Source: Halalkaliarchaeum desulfuricum (GTDB lineage: Archaea; Halobacteriota; Halobacteria; Halobacteriales; Haloferacaceae). From it: a DNA stretch of 64,000 nucleotides. Every line of letters begins with the position of its first letter. Within the stretch, counting starts at the first letter, position 1. Where the stretch lies: positions 1,612,001 through 1,676,000 of the forward strand of contig NZ_CP025066.1 of NCBI RefSeq assembly GCF_002952775.1, read 5' to 3'. Below are positions 37,961 through 54,071 of the stretch, piece by piece. The notes under the pieces were generated by a model. That model was not told the DNA's origin and made no database searches. It was given only the letters and a program-made list of their open reading frames with translations. The position numbers and the translations under genes are program-made.

Positions 37961-39031
37961 CTATGCGGATTTAGATTGATTTTCAATCGTCTCTAACTTC
38001 TTCTCTAATTTTTGATTGTATTTTTCCCCATTTTCACCGTGGTGAACCCTATAATGGCAGTTAGGACAAAGAGCGATAACATTATTTGGTGTATCTGCTC
38101 CCCCTCTGCTTAGTTCGTGAATATGATGGACATGAAGATATGGTCCTCCATTTTTTCTGGTAAATGGCGCTGGATCGCCGCACCCTTCGCAGTATCCATC
38201 TGCTCTGGCTAATACGTATTCTTTGACTTCCGTAGATCGATCATATTGCGGCTTCTCAGTTGTCGTAGTTGAAATAGTCTCTGGGATATGTTGGGTCGCG
38301 CTTTCCATCGCTTTTTCCCTGAGTTGGTCTAATTCTGAACCTGTATTTTGATGATTAGTAGTCAGTTCTTTTTTCTGTTCACGTTCTGTCTGTGTCTCTT
38401 GGAATTCTTCAGTCTGCTCCTGCGAAATCTCTCCCTCTGTCGGTGATTTGTTCTTATTCGGTGAATTGGTGGCGGCAGCTTTGGTTTGTTCCTGTTTCTG
38501 AGGGGTTTCGTCGGGTTTCGTCAACGATGAATTGCCAGTTTTGTATTTGTATGGGGAATCCTCGTCGGCTAAAATCTCTTCAGGTGTCTTTGATTCAGAA
38601 TTAGGTTCAGGTGTCTTTGATTCAGAATTAGGTGTACTCTGGGGAGCTGTCGTAGAATTCGATACTGTTTCATTTTCCTTTGGAACGTGTTCAAGAATTG
38701 CACCTATGTTCTCTTGTTTTCTCAGACCGTGTTTTGAAATGTTTTCATGTGCATCACCATAATCAATAGAAAAGCCATAATTTGTCATCTCTTCCAGTTT
38801 ATCAATATAATTTGGTTTCAATATTCCCTTTGGTCTCTTTATTCTTGCAAAAGTTCCGGGTAGTTTCATCGCCTCGATCCGTTCGCCAACTGCACTGGCC
38901 TTAACCGGTCCGAGATTTATTTCCGTTTGTGTAGTTTCAACGATTCCATTTCCAGAATTGGTGATCTTGTGCACTTTCGCTTCAAATATTTTCCCGTTTA
39001 TGGGTACGCCCTCCACAACTTCCCGGTCCAT
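37961..39031 (-). CDS. TRAM-like domain plus HNH endonuclease
   Basis: 356 residues. Residues about 8-65 (GKIFEAKVHKITNSGNGIV, EINLGPVKASAVGERIEA) look like a TRAM OB-fold nucleic-acid-binding domain. A long Ser/Thr/Gln/Glu-rich linker (about 115-265) follows. The C-terminus is an HNH nuclease: CEGCGDPAPF, LHVHHIHELSRGG, NNVIALCPNCHYRVHH. The gene is conspicuously AT-rich and rich in Lys and Asn, unlike its neighbours, so it was acquired from elsewhere. It may act in defence or in mobile-element maintenance. Confidence 0.85.
   Translation of the reverse strand: MDREVVEGVPINGKIFEAKVHKITNSGNGIVETTQTEINLGPVKASAVGERIEAMKLPGTFARIKRPKGILKPNYIDKLEEMTNYGFSIDYGDAHENISKHGLRKQENIGAILEHVPKENETVSNSTTAPQSTPNSESKTPEPNSESKTPEEILADEDSPYKYKTGNSSLTKPDETPQKQEQTKAAATNSPNKNKSPTEGEISQEQTEEFQETQTEREQKKELTTNHQNTGSELDQLREKAMESATQHIPETISTTTTEKPQYDRSTEVKEYVLARADGYCEGCGDPAPFTRKNGGPYLHVHHIHELSRGGADTPNNVIALCPNCHYRVHHGENGEKYNQKLEKKLETIENQSKSA
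38581..38633. repeat. 27-bp tandem duplication in the HNH gene linker
   Basis: Two units with a 27-base period match at 26 positions in a row. They code for a doubled EPNSESKTP in the flexible linker and preserve the reading frame. Confidence 0.85.
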
Positions 39032-42129: not shown

Positions 42130-43302
42130 GTGTTCAAGATCCCCGAACCAGACGGTTATCTTTCGGCATCGGACGTCAAAGATGTAGCGGAAGAAGTCAT
42201 CACTCCACTCCCGTTGCCGGGTGTCGAGGGGAGCCCCCTCGACCCCGGCGACATCTGGCTCGTCGTCATATTAGCCTGCGTCAACGAGACCTCGATCTGG
42301 GAAACCTGCAAAGACACCGACGGAACGCCATGTGACGACACCACCTTCACGTGGCTCCACACCCTCAACCGTGAGTGGCTCGAAGTCGTCGCTAACCTCC
42401 TGCTTAAACGCCTTGCTATGACGATTCTCGACCGGTCTGGGTCGAGAATCGTCTCCATCGACTTCATCGACAATCCCTACCACGGTGATCACTACGTCGA
42501 TGAAGGTGAACTCTGCTCGATGGCTCCGAAAGATGGCACGACTACGTGCCATCGGTACTGTACGGCATACGTTGTCTCAAACGAAAAGCCGGTGACTCTG
42601 GCGATGACGTACGTCCGCAACGACGAAGACGAGGCCGACGCGGTCGAGCGCGTGCTCGCCCGCGTCGAGAACTATCCGTTCGAGATCGATCTTTTGCTTG
42701 CCGACAGCGGCTTCTACAACGAGCGCGTCATCCGCCGGTCTCGTGAGATCGCTGCAACGGTCGTTCACGTCCCCAAGAAGGGTGAGCGGATGAAGGACAA
42801 ACTCGACGTCCACAAGTCGTACATGACGACCTACCGCATGTACAAGGACAGCGAGCGGGAACTGCGCTTCCCGCTCGCGGTCGCTGTTTCCTACCAGAAC
42901 GGTAATCGGGGCAAGCACGGCGAGGTTGTCCGAGGCTACGTGGCTTGCGGCGTGACTGATCGATCAGCAAAGCAGGTCGAACGCCTCTACAGAAAGCGAT
43001 CAGGCATCGAAACGAGCTACCGACTGCTTCGGCAAGCACGAGGGATCACGACGACACGTGATCCCGTCGTGCGGTTTGCGATCATGCTCGTTGCAGCGCT
43101 GCTGGAGAATCTGTGGTTGGTGCTGCGATGGGCGGTCGTCGCCCGCCCGCGGCGGGGCGGGCGCGACCTGCCCGAGGAGTTCACGTTCAAGACGTTCTGC
43201 GACTGGATTCGACACGAACTGGAAGCAGAGTTACGGCGTCGGTGGAGACTCAAGATGAATGGAGTTGGTGTGCCGGCGTCACAGGCTGTGGCCGCGGGCT
43301 GA
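42130..43302 (+). CDS. Transposase, ISH3/IS4 superfamily
   Basis: 390 residues, full length. The DDE catalytic residues are likely in VSIDFIDNPYHG (first Asp) and LLLADSGFYN (second Asp). The C1 signature is present as LYRKRSGIETSYRLLRQARG, the Y-(2)-R-(3)-E type spacing. The start is an ATG after TGTTCAAG. There is no frameshift, so the element may still be active. Confidence 0.88.
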   Translation: MFKIPEPDGYLSASDVKDVAEEVITPLPLPGVEGSPLDPGDIWLVVILACVNETSIWETCKDTDGTPCDDTTFTWLHTLNREWLEVVANLLLKRLAMTILDRSGSRIVSIDFIDNPYHGDHYVDEGELCSMAPKDGTTTCHRYCTAYVVSNEKPVTLAMTYVRNDEDEADAVERVLARVENYPFEIDLLLADSGFYNERVIRRSREIAATVVHVPKKGERMKDKLDVHKSYMTTYRMYKDSERELRFPLAVAVSYQNGNRGKHGEVVRGYVACGVTDRSAKQVERLYRKRSGIETSYRLLRQARGITTTRDPVVRFAIMLVAALLENLWLVLRWAVVARPRRGGRDLPEEFTFKTFCDWIRHELEAELRRRWRLKMNGVGVPASQAVAAG

Positions 43303-43805: not shown

Positions 43806-44822
43806 CTAAATACTGCTCTGGAAGTTACCAACGAAGTCCGAGTGACTGGATAGATCTATGGTTTCGAAATCAACTGTGCTGAACTCTGATTTTGGAATCA
43901 TCAGGGTCTGTGTTCTCCCGCCAGTCATCCCAGGACCACCACCTTGAATCTGCCAAGCGGAAGCCCGGATCACGTCCGACAGATGAATTGACTGCCAGTT
44001 CACAAACGCACGGTCAAATACGTGAAGTTCATCGGCTTCTTCAACCTCTCTGACGATGTAAATCGGGTCTAGGCCTCTGGTCAGTGCGACCCGCATCATT
44101 ACGATTAAACGGCTTACGTCCAGCCCGAATAACTCGGCCGTATCCTGATAGGCTGTTTTTTCCTTGATTTCGTAGGGAACAATCTCAGAATCGCTGACCA
44201 AGAGACCGTCGACGTCGAAGTAGGTGCCTGTAAAGCTGTATGTCTCCTTCAGGTGGTGGGAGAAAAAGTGCTCTTTGTAGAACATCTCTTTCAGCACATC
44301 ATCGGAGAAATCAGTGACAGCGTCAGTGAACTCGTCCAAGTAATCGTCATCATCTTGGGTAGTTCTCCCTCTTGTTCTCCACGCCTCTGTTTCGTCTTCA
44401 ATATTCACCTGGTTGAGTTCACGGTCATCAACGTCATAGGAGCGCCATTTCCACTCCAGTTCGTGTTCTATAGGTGTGTCCCCTGACCCGCCTCTAAAAC
44501 TGCTCAGATCTGATTGCTCACTTCCCTCTACAGAAGGGAAAATCACCGTAGTTCCGGCATCCTCCATCAACCGAGCGGCCTCTATCTGTCCCTGTGTAAG
44601 ACTCTCCTCCTCCGCCGCGTCCAAAATAAAAGTATAGATATTTCCCCACGGCTGGAACTCATTGTTTGCTGGCTTCGGTTGAAACAGCATCACCTCTGAC
44701 ACGGGTTCTATGTCAGTAGGCTCCAGACAGTCTAGAAACCGGGCCTCGGCTATCATTCCGACTGCTTTCTGTTGTGCCCAGTACGTGTGCAGATATTCGA
44801 GATAGTTCTCTCTGTCTGCCAT
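43806..44822 (-). CDS. PD-(D/E)xK-type nuclease, probable defence protein
   Basis: 338 residues. Around 203-220 it has FDVDGLLVSDSEIVPYEIKEK: acidic residues, then ExK on the next strand, the core of the PD-(D/E)xK nuclease fold. The first 150 residues match nothing I know. It is divergent from the restriction enzyme at 44970 with a short AT-rich promoter region between. It may be a second restriction-type nuclease or an effector of the neighbouring system. Fold assignment is by motif only. Confidence 0.72.
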   Translation of the reverse strand: MADRENYLEYLHTYWAQQKAVGMIAEARFLDCLEPTDIEPVSEVMLFQPKPANNEFQPWGNIYTFILDAAEEESLTQGQIEAARLMEDAGTTVIFPSVEGSEQSDLSSFRGGSGDTPIEHELEWKWRSYDVDDRELNQVNIEDETEAWRTRGRTTQDDDDYLDEFTDAVTDFSDDVLKEMFYKEHFFSHHLKETYSFTGTYFDVDGLLVSDSEIVPYEIKEKTAYQDTAELFGLDVSRLIVMMRVALTRGLDPIYIVREVEEADELHVFDRAFVNWQSIHLSDVIRASAWQIQGGGPGMTGGRTQTLMIPKSEFSTVDFETIDLSSHSDFVGNFQSSI

Positions 44823-44969: not shown

Positions 44970-46043
44970 ATGGCAGATTATTCCGGTGACCCCTCCGAGT
45001 TCAAGGTGTACTGGTTTGCTCGAGATCTTGTTGCTTCCAGTTACGGAAGCTTTGCTACGAAGGAAACGACCACCCTGAAGCAGCTTTCTTCCCGGATTGA
45101 ACAGGAACTTGAGAGTAATGATTCCCTCAACAGGACTGATCTCGAAACCCAGAAGGAGCAGATAAGAGACACAATCACTGGTTCCGTCAACAGAACCTAT
45201 GGAGGAGATATCTCAAAGCGCTATCGCCAGACAGAGGACCTTGCCGAAAGAATCCTCCGAAGAATTGAAGAAGAGGACGATATCCGGGAATTGCGGATTG
45301 CAATAGACGCAGTAGTACGTACCAGCGAGATACTGGATACTGCCCCGAGTTTCGGAAAACAGGAAATCGTCAATATCGTAGACGAAACACTGCAGAATGA
45401 TCAGGGAACACTCGATCCCTCGAAGGCCTACGACGCCCTCTACAGCGTTGATTTTGACGGAGAGGCCTATCAGCTTGGAGCTCAGCGAGAACCTCTTATC
45501 GACTACGTCTACAAAGAGATGGAGGAACTCCGGGCTGATCCTCGCATCGAGGAAAAGGAGATAGCGCGGATTATATCCGGTATCGTTCAGGAATATGAAC
45601 GGAGAGCTGGCCAGAGCCGGGCCTCTACCGCAGGAAACGTGCTTGAAACTGGGTTACAGCATATATTCAACCAGTTTGGGATCCCGGCGACTGGAGATTC
45701 AGCTCACTTCGGCGATCTCGAGATAGACAACATGGTAGATGGCCCGGACGGCAGTATCGGTTTCTCCTGCAAACGGACACTCCGGGAACGCTTCCGCCAG
45801 AGCCTCTCCCGGGAAGCCGAGATTGCTGTCGATGAAGTCTGGTTTGTCTCCCTGTTGATGGCTGACGTTTCAAAAGAGAAACTGCGGGACATCAGTAACG
45901 ACGGAAGTCGGATCTACGTGCCCCGGGACTCCTTCGTCTGGGATCAGTACCACACTGTCGATGATCTCTCCTATACGCTCCGTCCTGCTGATCAGTTCAT
46001 CGAAGATGTAGTAGAATTCACGGGAGTCTCCTCTCATCTCTAG
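44970..46043 (+). CDS. Type II restriction endonuclease, EcoRII C-terminal-like
   Basis: 357 residues. The C-terminal third has GNVLETGLQHIFNQFGIP, LEIDNMVDGPDGSIGFSCKRTLRERFRQSL. The Lys (268) and the Arg six residues later (274) match the CK-x5-R-x-RQ arrangement around the catalytic Lys and Arg of EcoRII and PspGI. Those enzymes cut CCWGG. The N-terminal 200 residues are helical and could be the DNA-binding or effector domain. With the C5-cytosine methyltransferase at 51554 it would make a restriction-modification pair, though the two are separated by four genes. ATG 44970 is the first in frame after a stop. Confidence 0.75.
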   Translation: MADYSGDPSEFKVYWFARDLVASSYGSFATKETTTLKQLSSRIEQELESNDSLNRTDLETQKEQIRDTITGSVNRTYGGDISKRYRQTEDLAERILRRIEEEDDIRELRIAIDAVVRTSEILDTAPSFGKQEIVNIVDETLQNDQGTLDPSKAYDALYSVDFDGEAYQLGAQREPLIDYVYKEMEELRADPRIEEKEIARIISGIVQEYERRAGQSRASTAGNVLETGLQHIFNQFGIPATGDSAHFGDLEIDNMVDGPDGSIGFSCKRTLRERFRQSLSREAEIAVDEVWFVSLLMADVSKEKLRDISNDGSRIYVPRDSFVWDQYHTVDDLSYTLRPADQFIEDVVEFTGVSSHL

Positions 46044-46193: not shown

Positions 46194-47894
46194 ATGTCTT
46201 CAGCGGAGCAACCGGTCGCAGCGTCTCTGTTTCACACGGAATGGAAAGACCTGTCAGACACACATAAAAAAAGACGAGAAAGATTGGAAGCGCAAATTGA
46301 TGGGTTTCCACAACCACAGAAAGCACTGTATATTGTTGGAGCGATTGGGAGTGGCAAAACTGAATTGCTCTACCATGGTCTAACGCATACGTGGACCCAG
46401 ACGGAGTTACCGGCGCTCTGCGTGACAATGAGCAAGTTGCTGAATGATATTATTGATGAAACAGGGATTGACCCTCAATCCCAACTGGTCACGCAGGCAG
46501 AGATCTACAATACGATCAAATCTATTTGTTTCGACAGGCTCGATCAGATATCCACTCTCATAGAAAATGATGGTGATATGAATCAGGTCAATTATCTTCC
46601 TGATGCTCCCCCTGATTCATCCCAAGCCAGTGAATACTTCGGGAATCTATTTAATCGTGAGATTGAAGCGGGAGATCTTGAAAAACTCGCTAAACAGGCT
46701 CAGAACGACTATTTTATTCTACATGTAGATGAGATGGAAGAGACATATGACCGACTTGATAAAGTGATTGAGGGGCATCAGGGGCCATTGAGAGAAGTAG
46801 TTAATAAAATAGCAAACGGGACATCGTCATTCTATTTCATCGGTTCATTTGCTTATGCCAGCATCCAAGAACTTGGACAGGCCGAGGGACGACGAACGCG
46901 CAATCTAAATCTGCCGATAATCCGTCCAGATGATGCGCGAAAGATACTCGGGGATGCACCATCAAGACACACCCTGAATCTCGCTTGGTGGGCAGGACGT
47001 GGCCGACCCGGATGGCTGTCAAAAGCAATCGATGAAGTTGATCTGGTAGAGGGTGAATTTGAGGGTTTATATGATACACTGGATGTGTTCCTCCCGAGTC
47101 AGATTTCCAATGTAGACTTGCTTGCAACACAACCACTTGAGTCACATCTCGAGAATAATCGCGTTGATTCAGCAGGCCGGAATTTGCTAACGTATCTTTT
47201 GCTCAACCCCGGGCCAGTCAAAATTAACGAGTTTGAAGACCCCGAGCAAGTCTACGGCATCCTCGATCGGAATGGCGAGTTACCCGTCTACACCATGGAG
47301 GAACGAACACCGCTAGAGGACGTGCTGACCTCGATCACGGAGGACATTCAGAGAATGGCCCTGTATGAGAAGTATGGTGAGCAAAGCCGAGAGCTCCGGC
47401 AATACATCAAGCGGGTGCTGTCAGCGGTGACCGATGATGATGCAATGATGGTATTTGGAGACGGGCTTTCCACCATCCCCAATCGAGGGAACCGTTTCAA
47501 GGAACTGGTGGCAGAACCATTGACAGAGAGAGCTCACGACATTGCTCTTGAGGAGATTCAGGACGAATCGGATGAGCTAGAGTTCCTCTATCAGCTATCG
47601 CAGCAGACTGGAAATCTCAGTGCCACCGAACTCGATGAGGCATACCCACAGTCAGTCAATAATTTTTCTGATGCACCGCGTGAGACATCTGAAATCAAAT
47701 ATGTGAGTGTTTCAATCAAAACCCTGAAAATAGCATTCCCGAGTTTGATCACGAACCCAATCCTGAACTTCCGCAACGCAAGTCTCGGGAAATCTGGACA
47801 GATAGAGATACTGGCGGAAAAACTCAACACGGTCGGACAGAGGCATCGAAGATTGACACAGTTTGGTGACCTGTTGCGGGGGGAGACTGAATGA
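46194..47894 (+). CDS. P-loop ATPase of the unknown four-gene defence-like operon
   Basis: 566 residues. Walker A is GAIGSGKT (49-56). Walker B is YFILHVDEMEE (about 173-183), with Asp then Glu as in AAA+/STAND-type ATPases. FYFIGSFAYAS and RRTRNLNLPIIRPDDARKIL follow, as in ORC/Cdc6-like or KAP-like NTPases. No helicase or SMC motifs are seen and no membrane segment. It overlaps the next gene by four bases (ATGA). It presumably powers the complex; the family is not recognised. Confidence 0.82.
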   Translation: MSSAEQPVAASLFHTEWKDLSDTHKKRRERLEAQIDGFPQPQKALYIVGAIGSGKTELLYHGLTHTWTQTELPALCVTMSKLLNDIIDETGIDPQSQLVTQAEIYNTIKSICFDRLDQISTLIENDGDMNQVNYLPDAPPDSSQASEYFGNLFNREIEAGDLEKLAKQAQNDYFILHVDEMEETYDRLDKVIEGHQGPLREVVNKIANGTSSFYFIGSFAYASIQELGQAEGRRTRNLNLPIIRPDDARKILGDAPSRHTLNLAWWAGRGRPGWLSKAIDEVDLVEGEFEGLYDTLDVFLPSQISNVDLLATQPLESHLENNRVDSAGRNLLTYLLLNPGPVKINEFEDPEQVYGILDRNGELPVYTMEERTPLEDVLTSITEDIQRMALYEKYGEQSRELRQYIKRVLSAVTDDDAMMVFGDGLSTIPNRGNRFKELVAEPLTERAHDIALEEIQDESDELEFLYQLSQQTGNLSATELDEAYPQSVNNFSDAPRETSEIKYVSVSIKTLKIAFPSLITNPILNFRNASLGKSGQIEILAEKLNTVGQRHRRLTQFGDLLRGETE

Positions 47895-49540
47895 ACACGA
47901 CCGTATTCCCGGTTCCAATCGGTGAGAGCGTCGACTTCGGGACCGACGAGATTATTGAAACCTACATTCGTGAAGATATTTCACCTCGAGTTTTTGATGA
48001 AGAAACTCTGTTTCTGGTGCTGCTCATCGGTGAGAATCCCGGGAATAACCGTGATCACATCCGAGATCAACTGCTGGAGAACCAGAAAGTAAAATATGCG
48101 GATCAGTTCGACAAAATCGACATTACAGTGCTGGGGGAACAGAGACTGAACGATTTCGCGGTCAGCCTTCTCTATAACTGCATGGATACGGACCCCGGAC
48201 GCGACCCGAGAGAGATCATCAACGATGAGACTATCATTACAGACGATGTTCGTAGAAAGATTGAGTTCTATCTTCCCCGCATCCATGAAAGAATCGAAGC
48301 GGTGGAAAGCCAGCTGATCAGTCAATTCCAGAACCGACAGAAGGAACTATTCCCTGTTGATGCGAATTCCAATGACGCACAGGGGTTATTCAAGACACTT
48401 GACGATGATATCGTAAGCGACGATCCGATCGTTGATTATGTTCTTGTGGCCGGGGCCGCTCTGGAAAGTCGACGCGATACGAGAAATATTGTCGAATATA
48501 TCCGTGAAAACGGCCTTGATGATGCCGGAATTCTCTCGAAAATTCGGGGATCTGGCGGCTATCAACGTATTTTCACCAACATCTACAGCCGACAACGAAG
48601 TGACTTCTTCCCGCGATTCACCGAAGCAATGAGTCTGTATGAAGACGGGATTACCGAAGTACAGACGCTTTCTCAGCTATATACAGCTCCTAATTACAGG
48701 GATGTCTATAACCTCGAATATGAACCGGAATCTCTCCTCCTCCATCGGTTTTCTGGGTCGAGTCAGCAGCTCGGGCGATATGTACTTGAAGCAGCTCTCA
48801 TAAGCCGGATTATCAGTCAGAATGAGGATGACATATCGGATGATTACGAGTCCACACGATCAGATCTCACCGATAAAATTGATAAAGTACGGGAGCTGCA
48901 GGACGATATTGATGAGTTGAACGAGTGGTTCGACGGAACCAAGATAACATACAATGCGAAGGACCCCGCAGACCAGGCCTCCGGGCTTGTAACCGAAGTT
49001 AACAAGACAAATAACACTATCCTGAAGTTTCTGTTCGGGGTGAACAGGTCGAACCGTACATCGGTCTTCACTACGGTAACACGACATCTGGAAGAGGAAC
49101 GCCAGAATCTGTCATCCAATATCGGCTCTATTCGCGGACACGTTGATCAATTAAAAGGATTTGAGTCTGAGCTAAATGAAATCCTCGAGGATATCGACGA
49201 AACATACAGCGAGATCGATTCGACTACGGTAGCGATCGAAGATCTTCCTTCTCAATCCACATTCAAGCAACACATCAAAGAAGAATGGGATACAACTGTT
49301 GAGGAGGTTTCCGAGTCGTTATCTATGGTCGATGTTTCAAAAGACCAGTCTGAGTTCAGGAACGATGAACGGGAATGGGGAGAGACGCTACAGGAGGCGG
49401 ATAAAGATCTTAATGAACTTAGAAACCGAGTCAGCAAACTCGAGGATATCGGAGAACATGCTGAAAGTATCAGTAATGAGCGTTCAAAAAGTGAAGAGAA
49501 ACTTGCTGCTATTGATCAAAAACTCGGGGGCGACACATGA
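47891..49540 (+). CDS. Long coiled-coil protein 1 of the unknown operon
   Basis: 549 acidic residues. The N-terminal 330 form a folded part starting MNTTVFPVPIGESVDFGTDE. From about 310 to the end there are long heptad-rich helices (LTDKIDKVRELQDDIDELNEWF, DKDLNELRNRVSKLEDIGEH). No known domain is recognised. A scaffold or DNA-sensing arm working with the upstream ATPase is plausible. ATGA overlaps at both ends. Confidence 0.8.
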   Translation: MNTTVFPVPIGESVDFGTDEIIETYIREDISPRVFDEETLFLVLLIGENPGNNRDHIRDQLLENQKVKYADQFDKIDITVLGEQRLNDFAVSLLYNCMDTDPGRDPREIINDETIITDDVRRKIEFYLPRIHERIEAVESQLISQFQNRQKELFPVDANSNDAQGLFKTLDDDIVSDDPIVDYVLVAGAALESRRDTRNIVEYIRENGLDDAGILSKIRGSGGYQRIFTNIYSRQRSDFFPRFTEAMSLYEDGITEVQTLSQLYTAPNYRDVYNLEYEPESLLLHRFSGSSQQLGRYVLEAALISRIISQNEDDISDDYESTRSDLTDKIDKVRELQDDIDELNEWFDGTKITYNAKDPADQASGLVTEVNKTNNTILKFLFGVNRSNRTSVFTTVTRHLEEERQNLSSNIGSIRGHVDQLKGFESELNEILEDIDETYSEIDSTTVAIEDLPSQSTFKQHIKEEWDTTVEEVSESLSMVDVSKDQSEFRNDEREWGETLQEADKDLNELRNRVSKLEDIGEHAESISNERSKSEEKLAAIDQKLGGDT

Positions 49541-51099
49541 GTTCACAGGGTGAAACAGACGATTCAGAAGCATCGGAGTCAATGGTAGCGCAAATCAGAG
49601 AAGTCGAGGTGTCAGTTAACAACCATATTGATGAGCATATCCAAGTCAGACAGTCTCTCGAGAGTGTACTGGAGGAAATCCAGTCTGAATATGCGAATGA
49701 AGACATCGATGAGGCGATCAGGAACGCGATTCGGGAGGCGTATCAGGACAATGCACAGAGTGCAGTTCGAAGATACCGAAATCTGAACGAAGATGTTTCT
49801 CCAGAACAGTACTGTGAAGATATAGAAGGGTTGGCGGACCAGCTTTCTAGTATTCTGAATGAACCCCATGCGCGAAAGCTGGTGAATGATATGTCATCAT
49901 GGTTGACTGAGAGAGGGGGAGAACCGCTTGATGAAGATGAACGAGACGACCTTGTCGAGGCGTTCAAGGAAGATGTGAGTGCAACCAGAGGATATTTTGA
50001 GGATTTGAGAGAGTACTGGTCGTTACTTTGTGATGATGTACCGGACGAAGAATCATTGCTCAGACTTGTACGTACACAGCTCAAGGACAGTAATCGAGTG
50101 GAGGATGTTCGCTCGCTCACAATAGATATCCGGAGCGTTGGAAACGAACTAGTCTATCCAATCGAACTTGATACGGAAATCCCTCCGGCAGAGATGCTGG
50201 AATCGCGCATTAACGAAATCCTCAATGACAGAGTCAGCTCATGGGCGAGTAGCAGCGATCGGTTCAGTGAATTCGAAAACAAAGTCACCTCAGAGTGGGA
50301 TACGATTCGGAACACTGTTGAGGCAATCAACGAGAATGCTGTCAAGCTTGATAATATGGCTGATGATATTGTCTCAGAAGGACTTGGCTCTGAAGATATT
50401 ACGAGTCTGATGGATCGGATTGGGCGGGACGGCATCCCCGAGTGTGAGTCTCTCGAAGCACTCTGCGAGTTTATTGAGTCGCTTGTATCCGGTATTAAAC
50501 TTGTCCGAGAGATGGCCCGAACCAATCTTGACCGGTTCGGACATACAGAGGACAGCGTTCCGGATCGAATCGAAAATCGCGTTATGAAAACCACCGAATA
50601 CGAAACGCAAGCCAGAAAGACCCGCGAAGCCGCAATCGCTGTAGACACAGTATCGGACATCGAAGAAAAGAAAGGAGATTTCGACACGGCTGTTGAGGAA
50701 GCAAACAAGCTACTCATCCGACTTGAGGATGGCCTCAAACGCCAAGTTGAAACGATTGAAGAGATTGCAGCTCAGTTCGACGCTGATGATGAAATCGACG
50801 AGGCGCGGTCTCTTCGAGACAGAATCCCTTCGATGACACAGCTTTCAGATTATATCACTGGTTTTCGAGATTACGAAGAGATCCGTGCCAATGTACTTGA
50901 AGAAGCTCGTGAAGGACTCAGCGATGACGAGAAAAAGTTGTTTGATCACATTATCGATAAGGGCGGAGAACTCACAATTGATGCGGGAGATGTCGAAGAG
51001 TTTGTTGATGGACTGGGCTGGTCTGATAACCGACTCGGGCACGCATTGACAGGGCTAAATAACGAGGGAATCATCAATGTCAATGTGAGTGTTTTCTGA
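49537..51099 (+). CDS. Long coiled-coil protein 2 with C-terminal winged-helix-like end
   Basis: 520 residues, almost entirely helical and acidic (QIREVEVSVNNHIDEHIQVRQSLESVLEEI near the start). The last 60 residues (LSDDEKKLFDHIIDKGGELTIDAGDVEEFVDGLGW, LGHALTGLNNEGIINV) look like a winged helix that could bind DNA. Overlaps the next gene by one base (TGATG). Not an SMC: no ATPase heads. Confidence 0.8.
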   Translation: MSSQGETDDSEASESMVAQIREVEVSVNNHIDEHIQVRQSLESVLEEIQSEYANEDIDEAIRNAIREAYQDNAQSAVRRYRNLNEDVSPEQYCEDIEGLADQLSSILNEPHARKLVNDMSSWLTERGGEPLDEDERDDLVEAFKEDVSATRGYFEDLREYWSLLCDDVPDEESLLRLVRTQLKDSNRVEDVRSLTIDIRSVGNELVYPIELDTEIPPAEMLESRINEILNDRVSSWASSSDRFSEFENKVTSEWDTIRNTVEAINENAVKLDNMADDIVSEGLGSEDITSLMDRIGRDGIPECESLEALCEFIESLVSGIKLVREMARTNLDRFGHTEDSVPDRIENRVMKTTEYETQARKTREAAIAVDTVSDIEEKKGDFDTAVEEANKLLIRLEDGLKRQVETIEEIAAQFDADDEIDEARSLRDRIPSMTQLSDYITGFRDYEEIRANVLEEAREGLSDDEKKLFDHIIDKGGELTIDAGDVEEFVDGLGWSDNRLGHALTGLNNEGIINVNVSVF

Positions 51100-51512
51100 T
51101 GAGCGAATACGACCATAACGAACTCGTCCGTCTGGTGTATCAGAATCTGGAAGAGGACCTTGATCAGGCAGAACTCGTAGCGTGCAAAGACGGGAAAGAA
51201 ATCAAACTGGGAAACCTGAATGTGCAGCGGCGACACTGGGACGGAAAAGAAGGTGCGCCGGATATTGTGGTACAACTCCGTGGGCTGTCACTCCTCGGCA
51301 GGAGATTTGATACGATCCCATTCGCACTCGTCGAGATCGAGGAGTCCATAGGTGCTGCCAAACGGGATCTTGAAAGCTTCCTTGACAAGAAAGAAGACAA
51401 CAAACCAACAGTCATCGTTACGGATGGTGAAAGCGAATCGCGGCGGCTTGACAGGGAGGGAACTCATGTCTTCGATATTGAGGGAATATCACATACAGAC
51501 ATCGATGAATAA
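51099..51512 (+). CDS. Small PD-ExE nuclease-like protein of the unknown operon
   Basis: 137 residues. APDIVVQLRG, then IPFALVEIEESIGAAKRDLESFL gives PD, a gap of about 20, and E-I-E, with the lysine possibly supplied by the following helix (AAKRD). That is a variant of the PD-(D/E)xK nuclease core. GKPTVIV-like strand and DGESESRRLDREG follow. It could be the cutting or DNA-sensing subunit of the four-protein set; activity cannot be judged by eye. Confidence 0.75.
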   Translation: MSEYDHNELVRLVYQNLEEDLDQAELVACKDGKEIKLGNLNVQRRHWDGKEGAPDIVVQLRGLSLLGRRFDTIPFALVEIEESIGAAKRDLESFLDKKEDNKPTVIVTDGESESRRLDREGTHVFDIEGISHTDIDE

Positions 51513-51553: not shown

Positions 51554-52912
51554 TCAATCTGCCTTCTGTGGTTCTTCCTCCCTGATGGGCTGATTGAATA
51601 TCTCGCTCCGGATAGCCGTACCAATCGCCTGAGCCAGCAGCGGGGGAACAGCATTCCCGACCTGCTTGAAGGCGTGCGTACGGGAGACAGGAAACTCGAA
51701 GGTATCTTTGAAAGACTGGAGCCTTGCGGCCTCTCGAACCGTAATGGAACGCGCCTCGTTCGGATGGATAAACATATGCCCGTCCTTGTAGAGATGGGCC
51801 ACGATTGTTGTAGCAGGTTCTTTCGGATTCTGTTTCTTGAGTTTGTCCGGGAAGATGTCAGTCCGGTATGGCTGATGTTCTTCGGGTATATCACCGATGA
51901 TGTACGAGGTCCCCTCGCCGAGGAGTTTGTAGAGAGTCAGGTCTCGCATATTGTGTCCCCGGCATTCGTGGTTCAGGAGTTCCTGTTCCTCCCAGTCCTG
52001 ACCTTCATCACGGTCGCGGGCCCAGTACTGGTACTCCGAAACAGGGCCTAGCTCATATTCGTCTGCTCTGGTGGGCGGCGTCTCTCCGCTCGGAGATACC
52101 GGCGGGAGATCGAGGATACCGTCGGCCACGGTATTCCAGGACTCTTTGCTCCGCCTGTTCTTCCGGAAGGCAGGGAACTCCTCGTCTTCACGGTCGTCAA
52201 CAAAGCCGTCAAGAGTATGCTGGTCCTCTTCAGATCTCTTGGATGGATCTCTGCTGTACTTGATTTTCTTCTCCTCTTCGGTCTGGGGAGGTCGGTGTGT
52301 CTCCCACTGTTCCATGTCCGGGTTCTCAGAGCCGATGCGGTTGCCGATAAAGAACAGACGTTTTCGGTGCTGGGGAACGCCGTAATTTGCCGCATCCAGA
52401 AGCTGGACTCGAACACTGTAATTCAGATCGAGATCCATATCCGCCACCGGCCTTTCGCCACGTATCTGCTCTTTGATGGTGTCGACGACGGGTTTTCCAT
52501 CCTCGTTTTCAGCTGAAAGCATCCCCTCCACGTTCTCCATCAGGAAGGCTCTGGGCTGATAGTGATCGACGAATCGGAGGAACTCTTCGTACAGGAGATG
52601 CCGCTCGTCGCTCTGGTTGTCCTGCCCTTCAAGGGAGTTGATCTTGCTCCGGCCGACGAGAGAAAACGTCGGACAGGGCGGTCCTCCCGCCACGAGATCG
52701 AGTTCCCCCTCGTCCAGCCCGAGATCCGGCGGCTCCTCTTCCCGGATATCACCGACCGTCATCTCGCAAGCGTGATTGGCCTCATATGTCGGCTTCGTCT
52801 TTTCCTCGTGATCGATACCCCACAGGATCTCAAAACCGGCATCGTGCAGCCCCTGTGAGAGCCCACCAGCTCCGCAAAAGAGATCAATTGCAGTCGGCAT
52901 GTTGCTAGTCAT
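51554..52912 (-). CDS. DNA (cytosine-5-)-methyltransferase
   Basis: 452 residues. The C5 motifs are in order: I AIDLFCGAGGLSQG (8-21), IV GGPPCPTFS with catalytic Cys80, VI MENVEG (125-130), VIII QHRKRLFFIG, then a variable target-recognition region of about 180 residues and X KQVGNAVPPLLA. It methylates cytosine at C5 using SAM. Its likely partners are the EcoRII-like nuclease at 44970 and the glycosylase at 53289. ATG 52912 or 52900. It converges with the four-gene operon 41 bases away. Confidence 0.94.
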   Translation of the reverse strand: MTSNMPTAIDLFCGAGGLSQGLHDAGFEILWGIDHEEKTKPTYEANHACEMTVGDIREEEPPDLGLDEGELDLVAGGPPCPTFSLVGRSKINSLEGQDNQSDERHLLYEEFLRFVDHYQPRAFLMENVEGMLSAENEDGKPVVDTIKEQIRGERPVADMDLDLNYSVRVQLLDAANYGVPQHRKRLFFIGNRIGSENPDMEQWETHRPPQTEEEKKIKYSRDPSKRSEEDQHTLDGFVDDREDEEFPAFRKNRRSKESWNTVADGILDLPPVSPSGETPPTRADEYELGPVSEYQYWARDRDEGQDWEEQELLNHECRGHNMRDLTLYKLLGEGTSYIIGDIPEEHQPYRTDIFPDKLKKQNPKEPATTIVAHLYKDGHMFIHPNEARSITVREAARLQSFKDTFEFPVSRTHAFKQVGNAVPPLLAQAIGTAIRSEIFNQPIREEEPQKAD

Positions 52913-53028
52913 TCGTACGAACCAATACGGTGGTGATCGTTTAAATCTCCCCTTCCAGTCATGTGTGTATACTGTATCTATATTGTAACCAAGTTAAATA
53001 CTTCGCCACAGGAAACTCATCGGACTGG
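52913..53028. promoter_or_regulatory. Divergent promoter region of methyltransferase and winged-helix genes
   Basis: AAGTTAAATACTTC at 52991-53004 is a TATA-like stretch with dyad character (AAGT...ACTT) about 32 bases before the ATG at 53029. On the minus strand CGATTTAAACGATC-type sequence near 52937-52950 may serve the methyltransferase. Confidence 0.45.
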
Positions 53029-53283
53029 ATGGACGTCGAGGAATACTCGTGGGTGAAAGCAAGCACATATCGCGAGAACATTCTTCTGGCTCTCGAAGAG
53101 AAACCGCGGACCCCAAAGGAACTCGCAGAGATAACTGACTACTATCTCAGTCACGTAAGCAACGTGCTCTCCGATCTGGAGGACCATGGACTGGCTGAAT
53201 GTCTGACTCCGGATCGACGGAAAGGCCGACTCTGGGCAGCTACCGAGAAAGGTGAAGAGCTGATTGCAGATCTCAAACGCTAG
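53029..53283 (+). CDS. Winged-helix regulator of the restriction-modification cluster
   Basis: 84 residues. YRENILLALEEKPRTPKELAEITDYYLSHVSNVLSDLEDHGLAECLTPDRRKGRLWAAT is a complete ArsR/MarR-like winged helix. It is divergent from the methyltransferase and six bases before the glycosylase gene. Its position is that of a controller of methyltransferase and nuclease timing. ATG 53029 is chosen from the TATA spacing. Confidence 0.82.
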   Translation: MDVEEYSWVKASTYRENILLALEEKPRTPKELAEITDYYLSHVSNVLSDLEDHGLAECLTPDRRKGRLWAATEKGEELIADLKR

Positions 53284-53288
53284 AGACA

Positions 53289-54071
53289 ATGAGTGAACTT
53301 CCGTTTGGCAAAACCCGGACCACGCCCGATGAACTCCGGACACAGATCGATACAGCCGCCGCGGTCAGACGCGCGAGAGAGGGCGGAGTAAGCTGCCCGG
53401 AACAGCGTATTGATCGGTTTATCCAGATCGTTCCGGATCTTCTTGAATGGCTGGAAAACCATGGGAGGGAGTATCCATGGCGACACTCGTCGGACGCATG
53501 GGAGGTCTACATTGCCGAGATACTTCTGCAGCGAACGCGTGGTGATGCCGTTGCAGAGGTCTATAGCGCATTTCTGGATGAATTTCCTGATCCCGACTCA
53601 CTGGCGAACGCCACTGAAGAGGATATACGACAGCTCGTTGAACCGCTTGGGTTCGTGAATCACCGGACACGGACTCTGAAAGAGGTGGGAAAACTGTTTT
53701 CAGCAGAGTTCGACGGCGACGTTCCGGATTCAGTCGAAGAACTGAAGCGGCCCTGGCGTGCCGGAGAATACTCGGCCCGTGCCTGTCAGATGTTTGCCCG
53801 AGGGAAGCCCATGGCGCTAGTTGATGCCAACTTCGCACGGGTTATCGGCCGCGTCCTCGGTTATGAAATGCCGGTTCAGCCACACAAAAGCAGTGCAGTG
53901 TATGGCCTGCTTGAGACGCTGCTCCCGACCAGTCCAGAGCTCGCACGGGCATTTAACCTTGCAATTCTGGATCTTGGAGCACTGATCTGTACAGCCGAGC
54001 ACCCGGACTGCAAATCATGTCCTATTAACCGGGGATGCGTCTATTACTGCACCAGAATGGAGGATGAGTAG
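53289..54071 (+). CDS. Mismatch DNA glycosylase (MIG/MutY family, HhH-GPD with Fe-S cluster)
   Basis: 260 residues. YPWRHSSDAWEVYIAEILLQRT is the MutY/MIG entry motif. At the HhH site it reads RPWRAGEYSARACQMF, with Tyr161 in the MIG-type position instead of Lys. VDANFARVIGR carries the catalytic Asp179. Four cysteines (C234, C241, C244, C250, spacing 6-2-5) form a [4Fe-4S] site. MIG-type enzymes remove T from T:G pairs produced by deamination of 5-methylcytosine, which fits the adjacent C5 methyltransferase. The usual LPGVG hairpin is degenerate here. Confidence 0.87.
   Translation: MSELPFGKTRTTPDELRTQIDTAAAVRRAREGGVSCPEQRIDRFIQIVPDLLEWLENHGREYPWRHSSDAWEVYIAEILLQRTRGDAVAEVYSAFLDEFPDPDSLANATEEDIRQLVEPLGFVNHRTRTLKEVGKLFSAEFDGDVPDSVEELKRPWRAGEYSARACQMFARGKPMALVDANFARVIGRVLGYEMPVQPHKSSAVYGLLETLLPTSPELARAFNLAILDLGALICTAEHPDCKSCPINRGCVYYCTRMEDE

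What the first reader, a model, noticed from the sequence alone, without database searches (positions are those of the whole stretch)
46194..51512. Four-gene overlapping operon with no recognised identity: ATPase, two coiled-coil proteins, small PD-ExE protein
The four genes overlap by one to four bases, so they are made together in fixed order. The parts are a P-loop ATPase (GAIGSGKT, FILHVDEMEE), two long acidic coiled-coil proteins, the second ending in a winged-helix-like segment, and a 137-residue protein with APD...VEIEE. They sit inside a restriction-modification island of different base composition. It fits none of the systems I know: no SMC or JetD (Wadjet), no PglZ/BrxC/PglX set (BREX), no DrmAB (DISARM), no DndCDE genes, no Zorya motor pair. 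An ATP-driven DNA-sensing complex with a nuclease is the natural guess.
Basis: partly seen in the sequence, partly recalled or inferred. Interest (0 to 1): 0.88.

Follow-up and report, generated by a model that had tools for sequence, protein, structure and literature searches.

The report
Undescribed four-gene ATPase-nuclease defence module
Four overlapping genes in a salt-loving archaeon make parts of a rare, mobile and so far unnamed probable DNA-defence machine: an ATP-driven DNA-binding protein (split in two here, one piece in bacteria), a coiled-coil partner and, usually, a small probable DNA-cutting enzyme.

Summary
The operon is real: A (566 aa), B (549), C (520) and D (137) overlap by 4, 4 and 1 bases in low-GC DNA. 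No protein passes a curated Pfam or NCBIfam cut-off; PADLOC and solved structures give only weak coiled-coil or P-loop matches. Relatives are few and patchy: A matches in 13 of 391 haloarchaeal genomes, six with the split A-B-C(-D) form. In bacteria and the other haloarchaea A and B are one ~1,050-residue protein, followed by C and a D-like gene; Pyrodictiales have an A-type ATPase, in some followed by a short C-like gene, and no D found.

A model of a bacterial A+B relative shows an ORC/Cdc6/BrxC-type AAA+ ATPase with a probable winged helix (A), then an alpha/beta domain and long helices (B): the domain order published for BrxC, split where BrxC's first part ends. D conserves GxPD...E(x)E, a PD-(D/E)XK-like motif; its fold is not confirmed. 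DNA methyltransferases lie within 10 kb in 7 of 13 haloarchaeal loci (0.35 expected). Two D-less A-B-C sets sit inside DISARM.

Best reading: a new BrxC-like ATPase restriction module with an exchangeable nuclease, distinct from BREX, DISARM and PbeABCD. No antiviral function has been shown.

The parts
46194..47894 (+). gene A, 566 aa: AAA+ ATPase of ORC/Cdc6/BrxC type (Walker A residues ~49-56, K55 at 46356-46358; Walker B D179 E180; WWAGRGRPGW 265-274), followed by a probable winged helix
   Evidence: ORF; conserved residues; homology to the N half of the fused protein of L028, E 3.4e-69; fold of that relative
47891..49540 (+). gene B, 549 aa: by homology an alpha/beta domain, then long helices; equals the C-terminal half of the fused A+B protein of bacteria
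   Evidence: profile of B matches the C half of bacterial fused proteins in order, E 2e-12 to 3e-8; alignment; model of L028 residues ~524-1084
49537..51099 (+). gene C, 520 aa: helical protein with a C-terminal winged-helix-like end
   Evidence: ORF; alignment; profile of C finds the bacterial gene at the same place in L028, E 2.6e-7; weak winged-helix matches at the C ends of two homologues. Coiled coil judged from sequence; not modelled
51099..51512 (+). gene D, 137 aa: probable PD-(D/E)XK-type nuclease; D55 at 51261-51263, E79 at 51333-51335, E81 at 51339-51341
   Evidence: invariant G52 P54 D55 P74 L77 E79 D90 in 11 sequences; helix-four strands-helix order in a low-confidence model; dN/dS about 0.07 between two relatives
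51554..52912 (-). C5-cytosine DNA methyltransferase, 452 aa, convergent with D; 85% identical to the one beside A-B-C in the DISARM locus L018
   Evidence: PF00145 7.3e-63; PADLOC MTase_II 1.3e-89, DrmMII 4.1e-80
52963..53283 (+). small winged-helix regulator, 106 aa (81% identical to the L018 counterpart)
   Evidence: HTH_5 above cut-off
53289..54071 (+). HhH-GPD DNA glycosylase next to the m5C methyltransferase (perhaps T/G mismatch repair); also in L018 and L019
   Evidence: PF00730 1.8e-16
44970..46043 (+). EcoRII-C-like restriction endonuclease, 357 aa, ending 150 bp before A; likely partner of the methyltransferase
   Evidence: PF09019 2.8e-5, 24.7 bits against a cut-off of 25; no relative in the other loci
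42130..43302 (+). DDE transposase near the island edge
   Evidence: PF01609 9.7e-9

Best explanation
ABCD is a horizontally moving, ATP-dependent anti-invader (restriction) module. A is an ORC/Cdc6/BrxC-type AAA+ ATPase with a winged helix; with B it forms a split BrxC-like protein. Inferred: ATP-bound A-B oligomerises on double-stranded DNA, B and C form an extended helical arm that together with the winged helices in A and C recognises or holds foreign or unmodified DNA, and D, a small metal-dependent nuclease, is brought in to cut it. A-B-C is the frequent core and D is exchangeable: it is replaced or supplemented by DISARM proteins in two loci, looks degenerate or unrelated in three, and was not found in Pyrodictiales. 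Where a DNA methyltransferase sits alongside, it probably marks self DNA; where none does, discrimination must be by another cue. Shown here: gene content, homology, order, conservation, the fold class of a relative of A, and the genomic associations. Inferred: DNA recognition, complex formation, DNA cutting and antiviral action.
For: Ordered set in six of 391 haloarchaeal genomes, all four genes in four of them; fused A+B, C and D-like genes in Desulfobacteraceae L028 and Firmicutes L040. Fold: AAA+ with best matches DnaA, RFC, ORC/Cdc6 and BrxC (9zll_A Z 11.0, 280 residues, rmsd 6.5, model 2-498); a profile of A gives ORC4 as top solved-structure match, E 0.0043. Published BrxC order: AAA+ and winged helix in residues 1-551, then alpha+beta 551-746, winged helix and coiled coil (PMC12839542, PMC13326643). 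D motif and purifying selection. Methyltransferase within 10 kb in 7 of 13 loci, 0.35 expected, P about 1e-8 under random placement. DISARM co-location. D proteins of a plasmid and a chromosome from two families are 96% identical.
Against: No experiment. D's fold is unconfirmed, it has no profile match, and its ExE lacks the usual lysine. In the window the methyltransferase may simply be the partner of the adjacent EcoRII-like enzyme. Six of 13 haloarchaeal loci have no methyltransferase of the three families searched within 10 kb. Defence islands gather unrelated systems, so association statistics overstate functional coupling. The fold evidence is from a bacterial relative, and C was not modelled. 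Haloarchaeal fused-type C proteins match the window's C only weakly.
Confidence: 0.6

Rival explanations
1. ABCD is the restriction half of a dedicated modification-dependent R-M system whose modification half is the adjacent m5C methyltransferase cassette; it cuts DNA lacking that mark.
For: The block A-B-C-(D), methyltransferase, winged-helix gene, glycosylase has the same order and orientation in the window and in L018; methyltransferases within 10 kb in 7 of 13 loci.
Against: The D-bearing sets L015, L016 and L017 have no methyltransferase of the three families within 10 kb; the types elsewhere differ (N6/N4 family at L024-L026, type I at L023); the window also holds an EcoRII-like enzyme that may own the methyltransferase.
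Confidence: 0.2
2. A-B-C is an accessory or sensor module for larger systems (DISARM, AddAB-like helicase-nucleases, type I R-M) and has no stand-alone activity.
For: Inside DISARM in L018 and L019 without D; next to AddB/UvrD-type genes in L020 and L022 and type I R-M in L023.
Against: L015, L016 and L017 carry the four genes without DISARM or a methyltransferase in the stretches examined; partners differ from locus to locus.
Confidence: 0.15
3. It is a replication, partition or chromosome-organising unit of mobile DNA, with A as an ORC-like initiator or loader.
For: A is ORC/Cdc6-like in fold; two sets lie on plasmids.
Against: Several sets lie on megabase contigs and in DISARM or R-M neighbourhoods; a conserved nuclease-like D is not needed for partition; two near-identical sets lie on a plasmid and on a 3.2-Mb contig.
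Confidence: 0.05

Closest known systems
BREX BrxC (ORC/Cdc6-type AAA+ ATPase; PMC12839542, PMC13326643)
   Same: AAA+ ATPase plus winged helix, then alpha/beta domain and coiled coil; the A/B split (566 aa) falls where BrxC's N-terminal part (1-551) ends; 9zll BrxC aligns over 280 residues at Z 11.0
   Different: Only the Walker A region matches a verified haloarchaeal BrxC in profile comparison; no PglZ in the window's genome; the neighbouring methyltransferase is of C5-cytosine type; separate C and D proteins
HerA/FtsK-linked Orc/Cdc6 capture systems (PMC10853773, PMC12839542)
   Same: ORC/Cdc6-type ATPase with winged-helix proteins and a REase in mobile neighbourhoods
   Different: No HerA/FtsK gene among the window genes examined; D is a separate small protein; C is a separate helical protein
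DISARM
   Same: Two A-B-C sets lie in haloarchaeal DISARM loci; the window's methyltransferase resembles DrmMII
   Different: A-D are not DISARM proteins and no DrmA was found in the window's genome
PbeABCD (PMC6459918)
   Same: Four-gene haloarchaeal antiviral set with a small fourth gene and a coiled-coil protein
   Different: PbeA is a PLD-helicase and PbeC an SMC-like/ABC ATPase; A-D match no Pbe profile except weak coiled-coil similarity of B; no DndC found
Lamassu / Wadjet (SMC-type)
   Same: Helical coiled-coil parts plus a nuclease; B matches LmuB and JetC profiles weakly in its coiled coil
   Different: The ATPase is AAA+, not ABC/SMC; B and C carry no GK[ST] P-loop

Membership tests
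BREX | PglZ protein | tested here: not met
   PF08665 gives no match in the window's genome; it does in another carrier and in controls
BREX | BrxC by sequence | tested here: not met
   no BrxC profile match for A or for 17 A/B rows; profile comparison with a verified haloarchaeal BrxC aligns only 18-24 columns around Walker A
BrxC-like AAA+ ATPases (fold level) | ORC-type AAA+ plus winged helix, then alpha/beta domain and coiled coil | tested here: inconclusive
   order matches in a modelled relative (against 104, 110), but BrxC is tied with DnaA, RFC and ORC in Z and only about residues 1-504 were compared
DISARM | DrmA helicase in the genome | tested here: not met
   DrmA family gives no match in G000 while 52 of 391 genomes and the control Haloferax volcanii match
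PbeABCD / Dnd | DndC in the genome | tested here: not met
   TIGR03183 gives no match in six carriers of the set; control genomes matched only below the cut-off
PbeABCD / Dnd | PbeA PLD-helicase and PbeC ATPase | tested here: not met
   no PbeA match; PbeC only with B's coiled coil at E 0.0074
Wadjet / Lamassu | SMC-type ABC ATPase | tested here: not met
   B and C have no GK[ST] P-loop; LmuB and JetC matches lie in the coiled coil
PD-(D/E)XK nucleases (gene D) | acidic catalytic motif PD...(D/E)XK | tested here: inconclusive
   GxPD...E invariant, second E mostly kept, no lysine in the usual place
PD-(D/E)XK nucleases (gene D) | core fold | tested here: inconclusive
   compatible element order but pLDDT 55.7; restriction enzymes only among weak matches
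HerA/FtsK capture systems | HerA/FtsK translocase in the operon | tested here: not met
   the operon holds only A-D and no HerA match was seen for the neighbours scanned
Dpd | DpdH | tested here: not met
   NF041065 matches B only in its coiled coil, 17.9 bits against a cut-off of 450

The most novel reading that the evidence does not exclude
A distinct family of prokaryotic immune systems, shared by archaea and bacteria, built on a BrxC-like ORC-type ATPase (sometimes split in two) plus a coiled-coil winged-helix partner, which swaps effectors: its own small nuclease, DISARM, or helicase-nucleases.
Probability: 0.4. Interest if true: 0.78.

Novelty: new variant of a known kind. Interest (0 to 1): 0.6.

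Why it matters
If right, a BrxC-type ATPase plus helical arm also works outside BREX, without PglZ, with a replaceable nuclease. A compact split form makes the question of what BrxC does in restriction testable with few parts, and adds a candidate system for haloarchaea that the profile libraries searched here do not list.

Tried and rejected
DpdH membership: the only sign was a coiled-coil match and PADLOC gave none. PbeABCD, Wadjet and Lamassu: coiled-coil matches only. Full-length BrxC homology by sequence: not found with a verified haloarchaeal BrxC as comparison. D's fold: model too poor to rank matches; weak restriction-enzyme rows (R.SwaI, VRR_NUC, NgoMIV) are noted but not used. Viral contigs: no relative found by this pattern search. 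Plasmid collection: only two records. A clean empty site in the other genome of the genus: flanking genes are not syntenic there. Literature: a search by protein accessions and DUF6852 found nothing and the other paper searches found no description of this set, within an open-access library only. ARMADA, BRIGADE and TALON (PMC12458937) were considered and set aside: they centre on YprA helicases, and no such helicase was found in the operon or among the neighbours scanned.

Full report
Observation. Pfam and NCBIfam give no match above a curated cut-off for any of the four, and PADLOC gives only weak coiled-coil matches; what appears is a weak AAA/STAND signal and DUF6852 for A, and coiled-coil matches for B and C.

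Relatives. A matches in 13 of 391 haloarchaeal genomes, 12 of 86 genera. Six carry A at full length (34-37% identity for the five others). In those, B and C follow, and D too in four (window, L015, L016, L017); L018 and L019 lack a detectable D. L015 and L017 are plasmids of Natrialbaceae archaeon AArc-T1-2 and Haloquadratum walsbyi C23, where all four genes are annotated hypothetical protein. The other seven have a protein of about 1,010-1,050 aa in which A is the N-terminal half. A pattern-based search of 84,980 species' genomes added Desulfobacteraceae, Dehalococcoidia, Chloroflexi, Firmicutes and Pyrodictiales. Profile of A: E 3.4e-69 to L028; profile of B matches the C half of bacterial fused proteins in order, E 2e-12 to 3e-8; profile of D matches the D-position genes of L028 and L040, E 1.5e-8 and 1.6e-8; profile of C matches L028's second gene, E 2.6e-7. 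A profile of the fused-type haloarchaeal C proteins matches the window's C only at E 0.18, so their common descent rests on position and weak bridging matches (L040 1.9e-6, L018 0.0009). In Pyrodictiales an A-type ATPase of about 850-910 aa (L037, L041, L042) is followed in some loci by a short C-like gene (L037, L042), and no D was found. G554, in the same phylum, has a B gene of the split type, a broken A and a 260-aa C candidate at the contig end with weak matches only. L015 and L016 D proteins are 96% identical across two families; dN/dS, taken from the printed dN and dS, is about 0.11, 0.13, 0.20 and 0.07 for A, B, C and D: all four are under purifying selection.

Structure. A 1,084-residue model of L028's A+B protein on 17 sequences has mean pLDDT 79, pTM 0.59. 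Foldseek and VIA place residues 1-504 among AAA+ proteins of the DnaA, RFC, ORC/Cdc6 and RuvB kind; BrxC 9zll_A aligns over 280 residues at Z 11.0, rmsd 6.5, tied with DnaA at 11.2. The profile of A alone ranks ORC4 first among solved structures, E 0.0043. The helix-strand order after the AAA+ part (H309-321, H327-331, H338-347, E350-354) fits a winged helix (inference). Published BrxC has AAA+ and winged helix in residues 1-551, alpha+beta 551-746, another winged helix and coiled coil. A ends at 566: the split falls at that boundary. By sequence A and a haloarchaeal BrxC, verified by its match to solved BrxC at E 2e-84, share only the P-loop. Pairing A+B with BrxC is therefore a fold-level and order-level similarity, not shown homology. 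D's model (pLDDT 55.7) has helix, four strands, helix with D55 and E79/E81 at strand ends, as in PD-(D/E)XK enzymes, but the fold searches are inconclusive and sequence searches empty.

Context. Upstream of A lies an EcoRII-C-like enzyme just under its cut-off, and downstream a C5 methyltransferase, a winged-helix regulator and a HhH-GPD glycosylase. The last three are 85, 81 and 65% identical to genes in the same order and orientation beside A-B-C in L018, where A-B-C lie downstream of DrmA (E 5e-164), DrmB and DrmC. L019 has DrmA-, DrmB- and DrmC-type genes homologous to those of L018, then C-B-A on the other strand and a DrmE-like gene. DrmA is found in 52 of 391 genomes but not in the window's own. 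L020 and L022 have AddB- and UvrD-type genes beside the set, L023 a type I R-M, L024 a methyltransferase directly after D, L028 a GHKL ATPase and a D12 methyltransferase. Of 13 haloarchaeal loci, 7 have a methyltransferase of three families within 10 kb, against 0.35 expected from each genome's own counts, P about 1e-8 under random placement; defence islands cluster, so this is an upper estimate of coupling. The flanks hold a DDE transposase and an HNH gene. The other held genome of the genus lacks A, and its flanks are not syntenic.

Judgement. Defence by an ATP-driven DNA-binding complex with an exchangeable nuclease is the best reading at about 0.6. It is not BREX, DISARM, Dnd/PbeABCD, Dpd or an SMC system by the tests in the membership table. 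It differs from described Orc/Cdc6-based capture systems in its separate C and D and in having no HerA gene among the neighbours scanned. It is rated a new variant of a known kind (ORC/Cdc6-type AAA+ anchored restriction); whether it deserves a family of its own needs a wider survey and an experiment.

Noticed in passing
window 51554-54071: C5 methyltransferase, winged-helix regulator and HhH-GPD glycosylase form a cassette shared with DISARM-side DNA of another genome (L018); the glycosylase may repair T/G mismatches from methylcytosine loss.
   Followed up: partly
window 44970-46043: Gene resembling the EcoRII C-terminal restriction domain, 24.7 bits against a cut-off of 25, without relatives in the other loci.
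   Followed up: no
window 43806-44822 (-): 338-aa gene without any family match between the transposase and the restriction-like gene.
   Followed up: no
window 37961-39031 (-): HNH endonuclease gene in DNA of GC 0.417 that holds a perfect tandem 27-base duplication at 38579-38632.
   Followed up: no
L024:13993-14631, L025:4138-4785, L026:4048-4698: The gene in D's place is degenerate in L024 (lost the ExE motif) and in L025/L026 shows no detectable D motif.
   Followed up: partly
L056:7318-10962 and L015: This haloarchaeon (G029) carries both a BREX locus with a verified BrxC on its main contig and, on a plasmid, the four-gene set.
   Followed up: yes
L017:9829-12207: In Haloquadratum walsbyi plasmid PL100 gene C is 792 aa and appears internally duplicated: the window's C matches it twice.
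   Followed up: no
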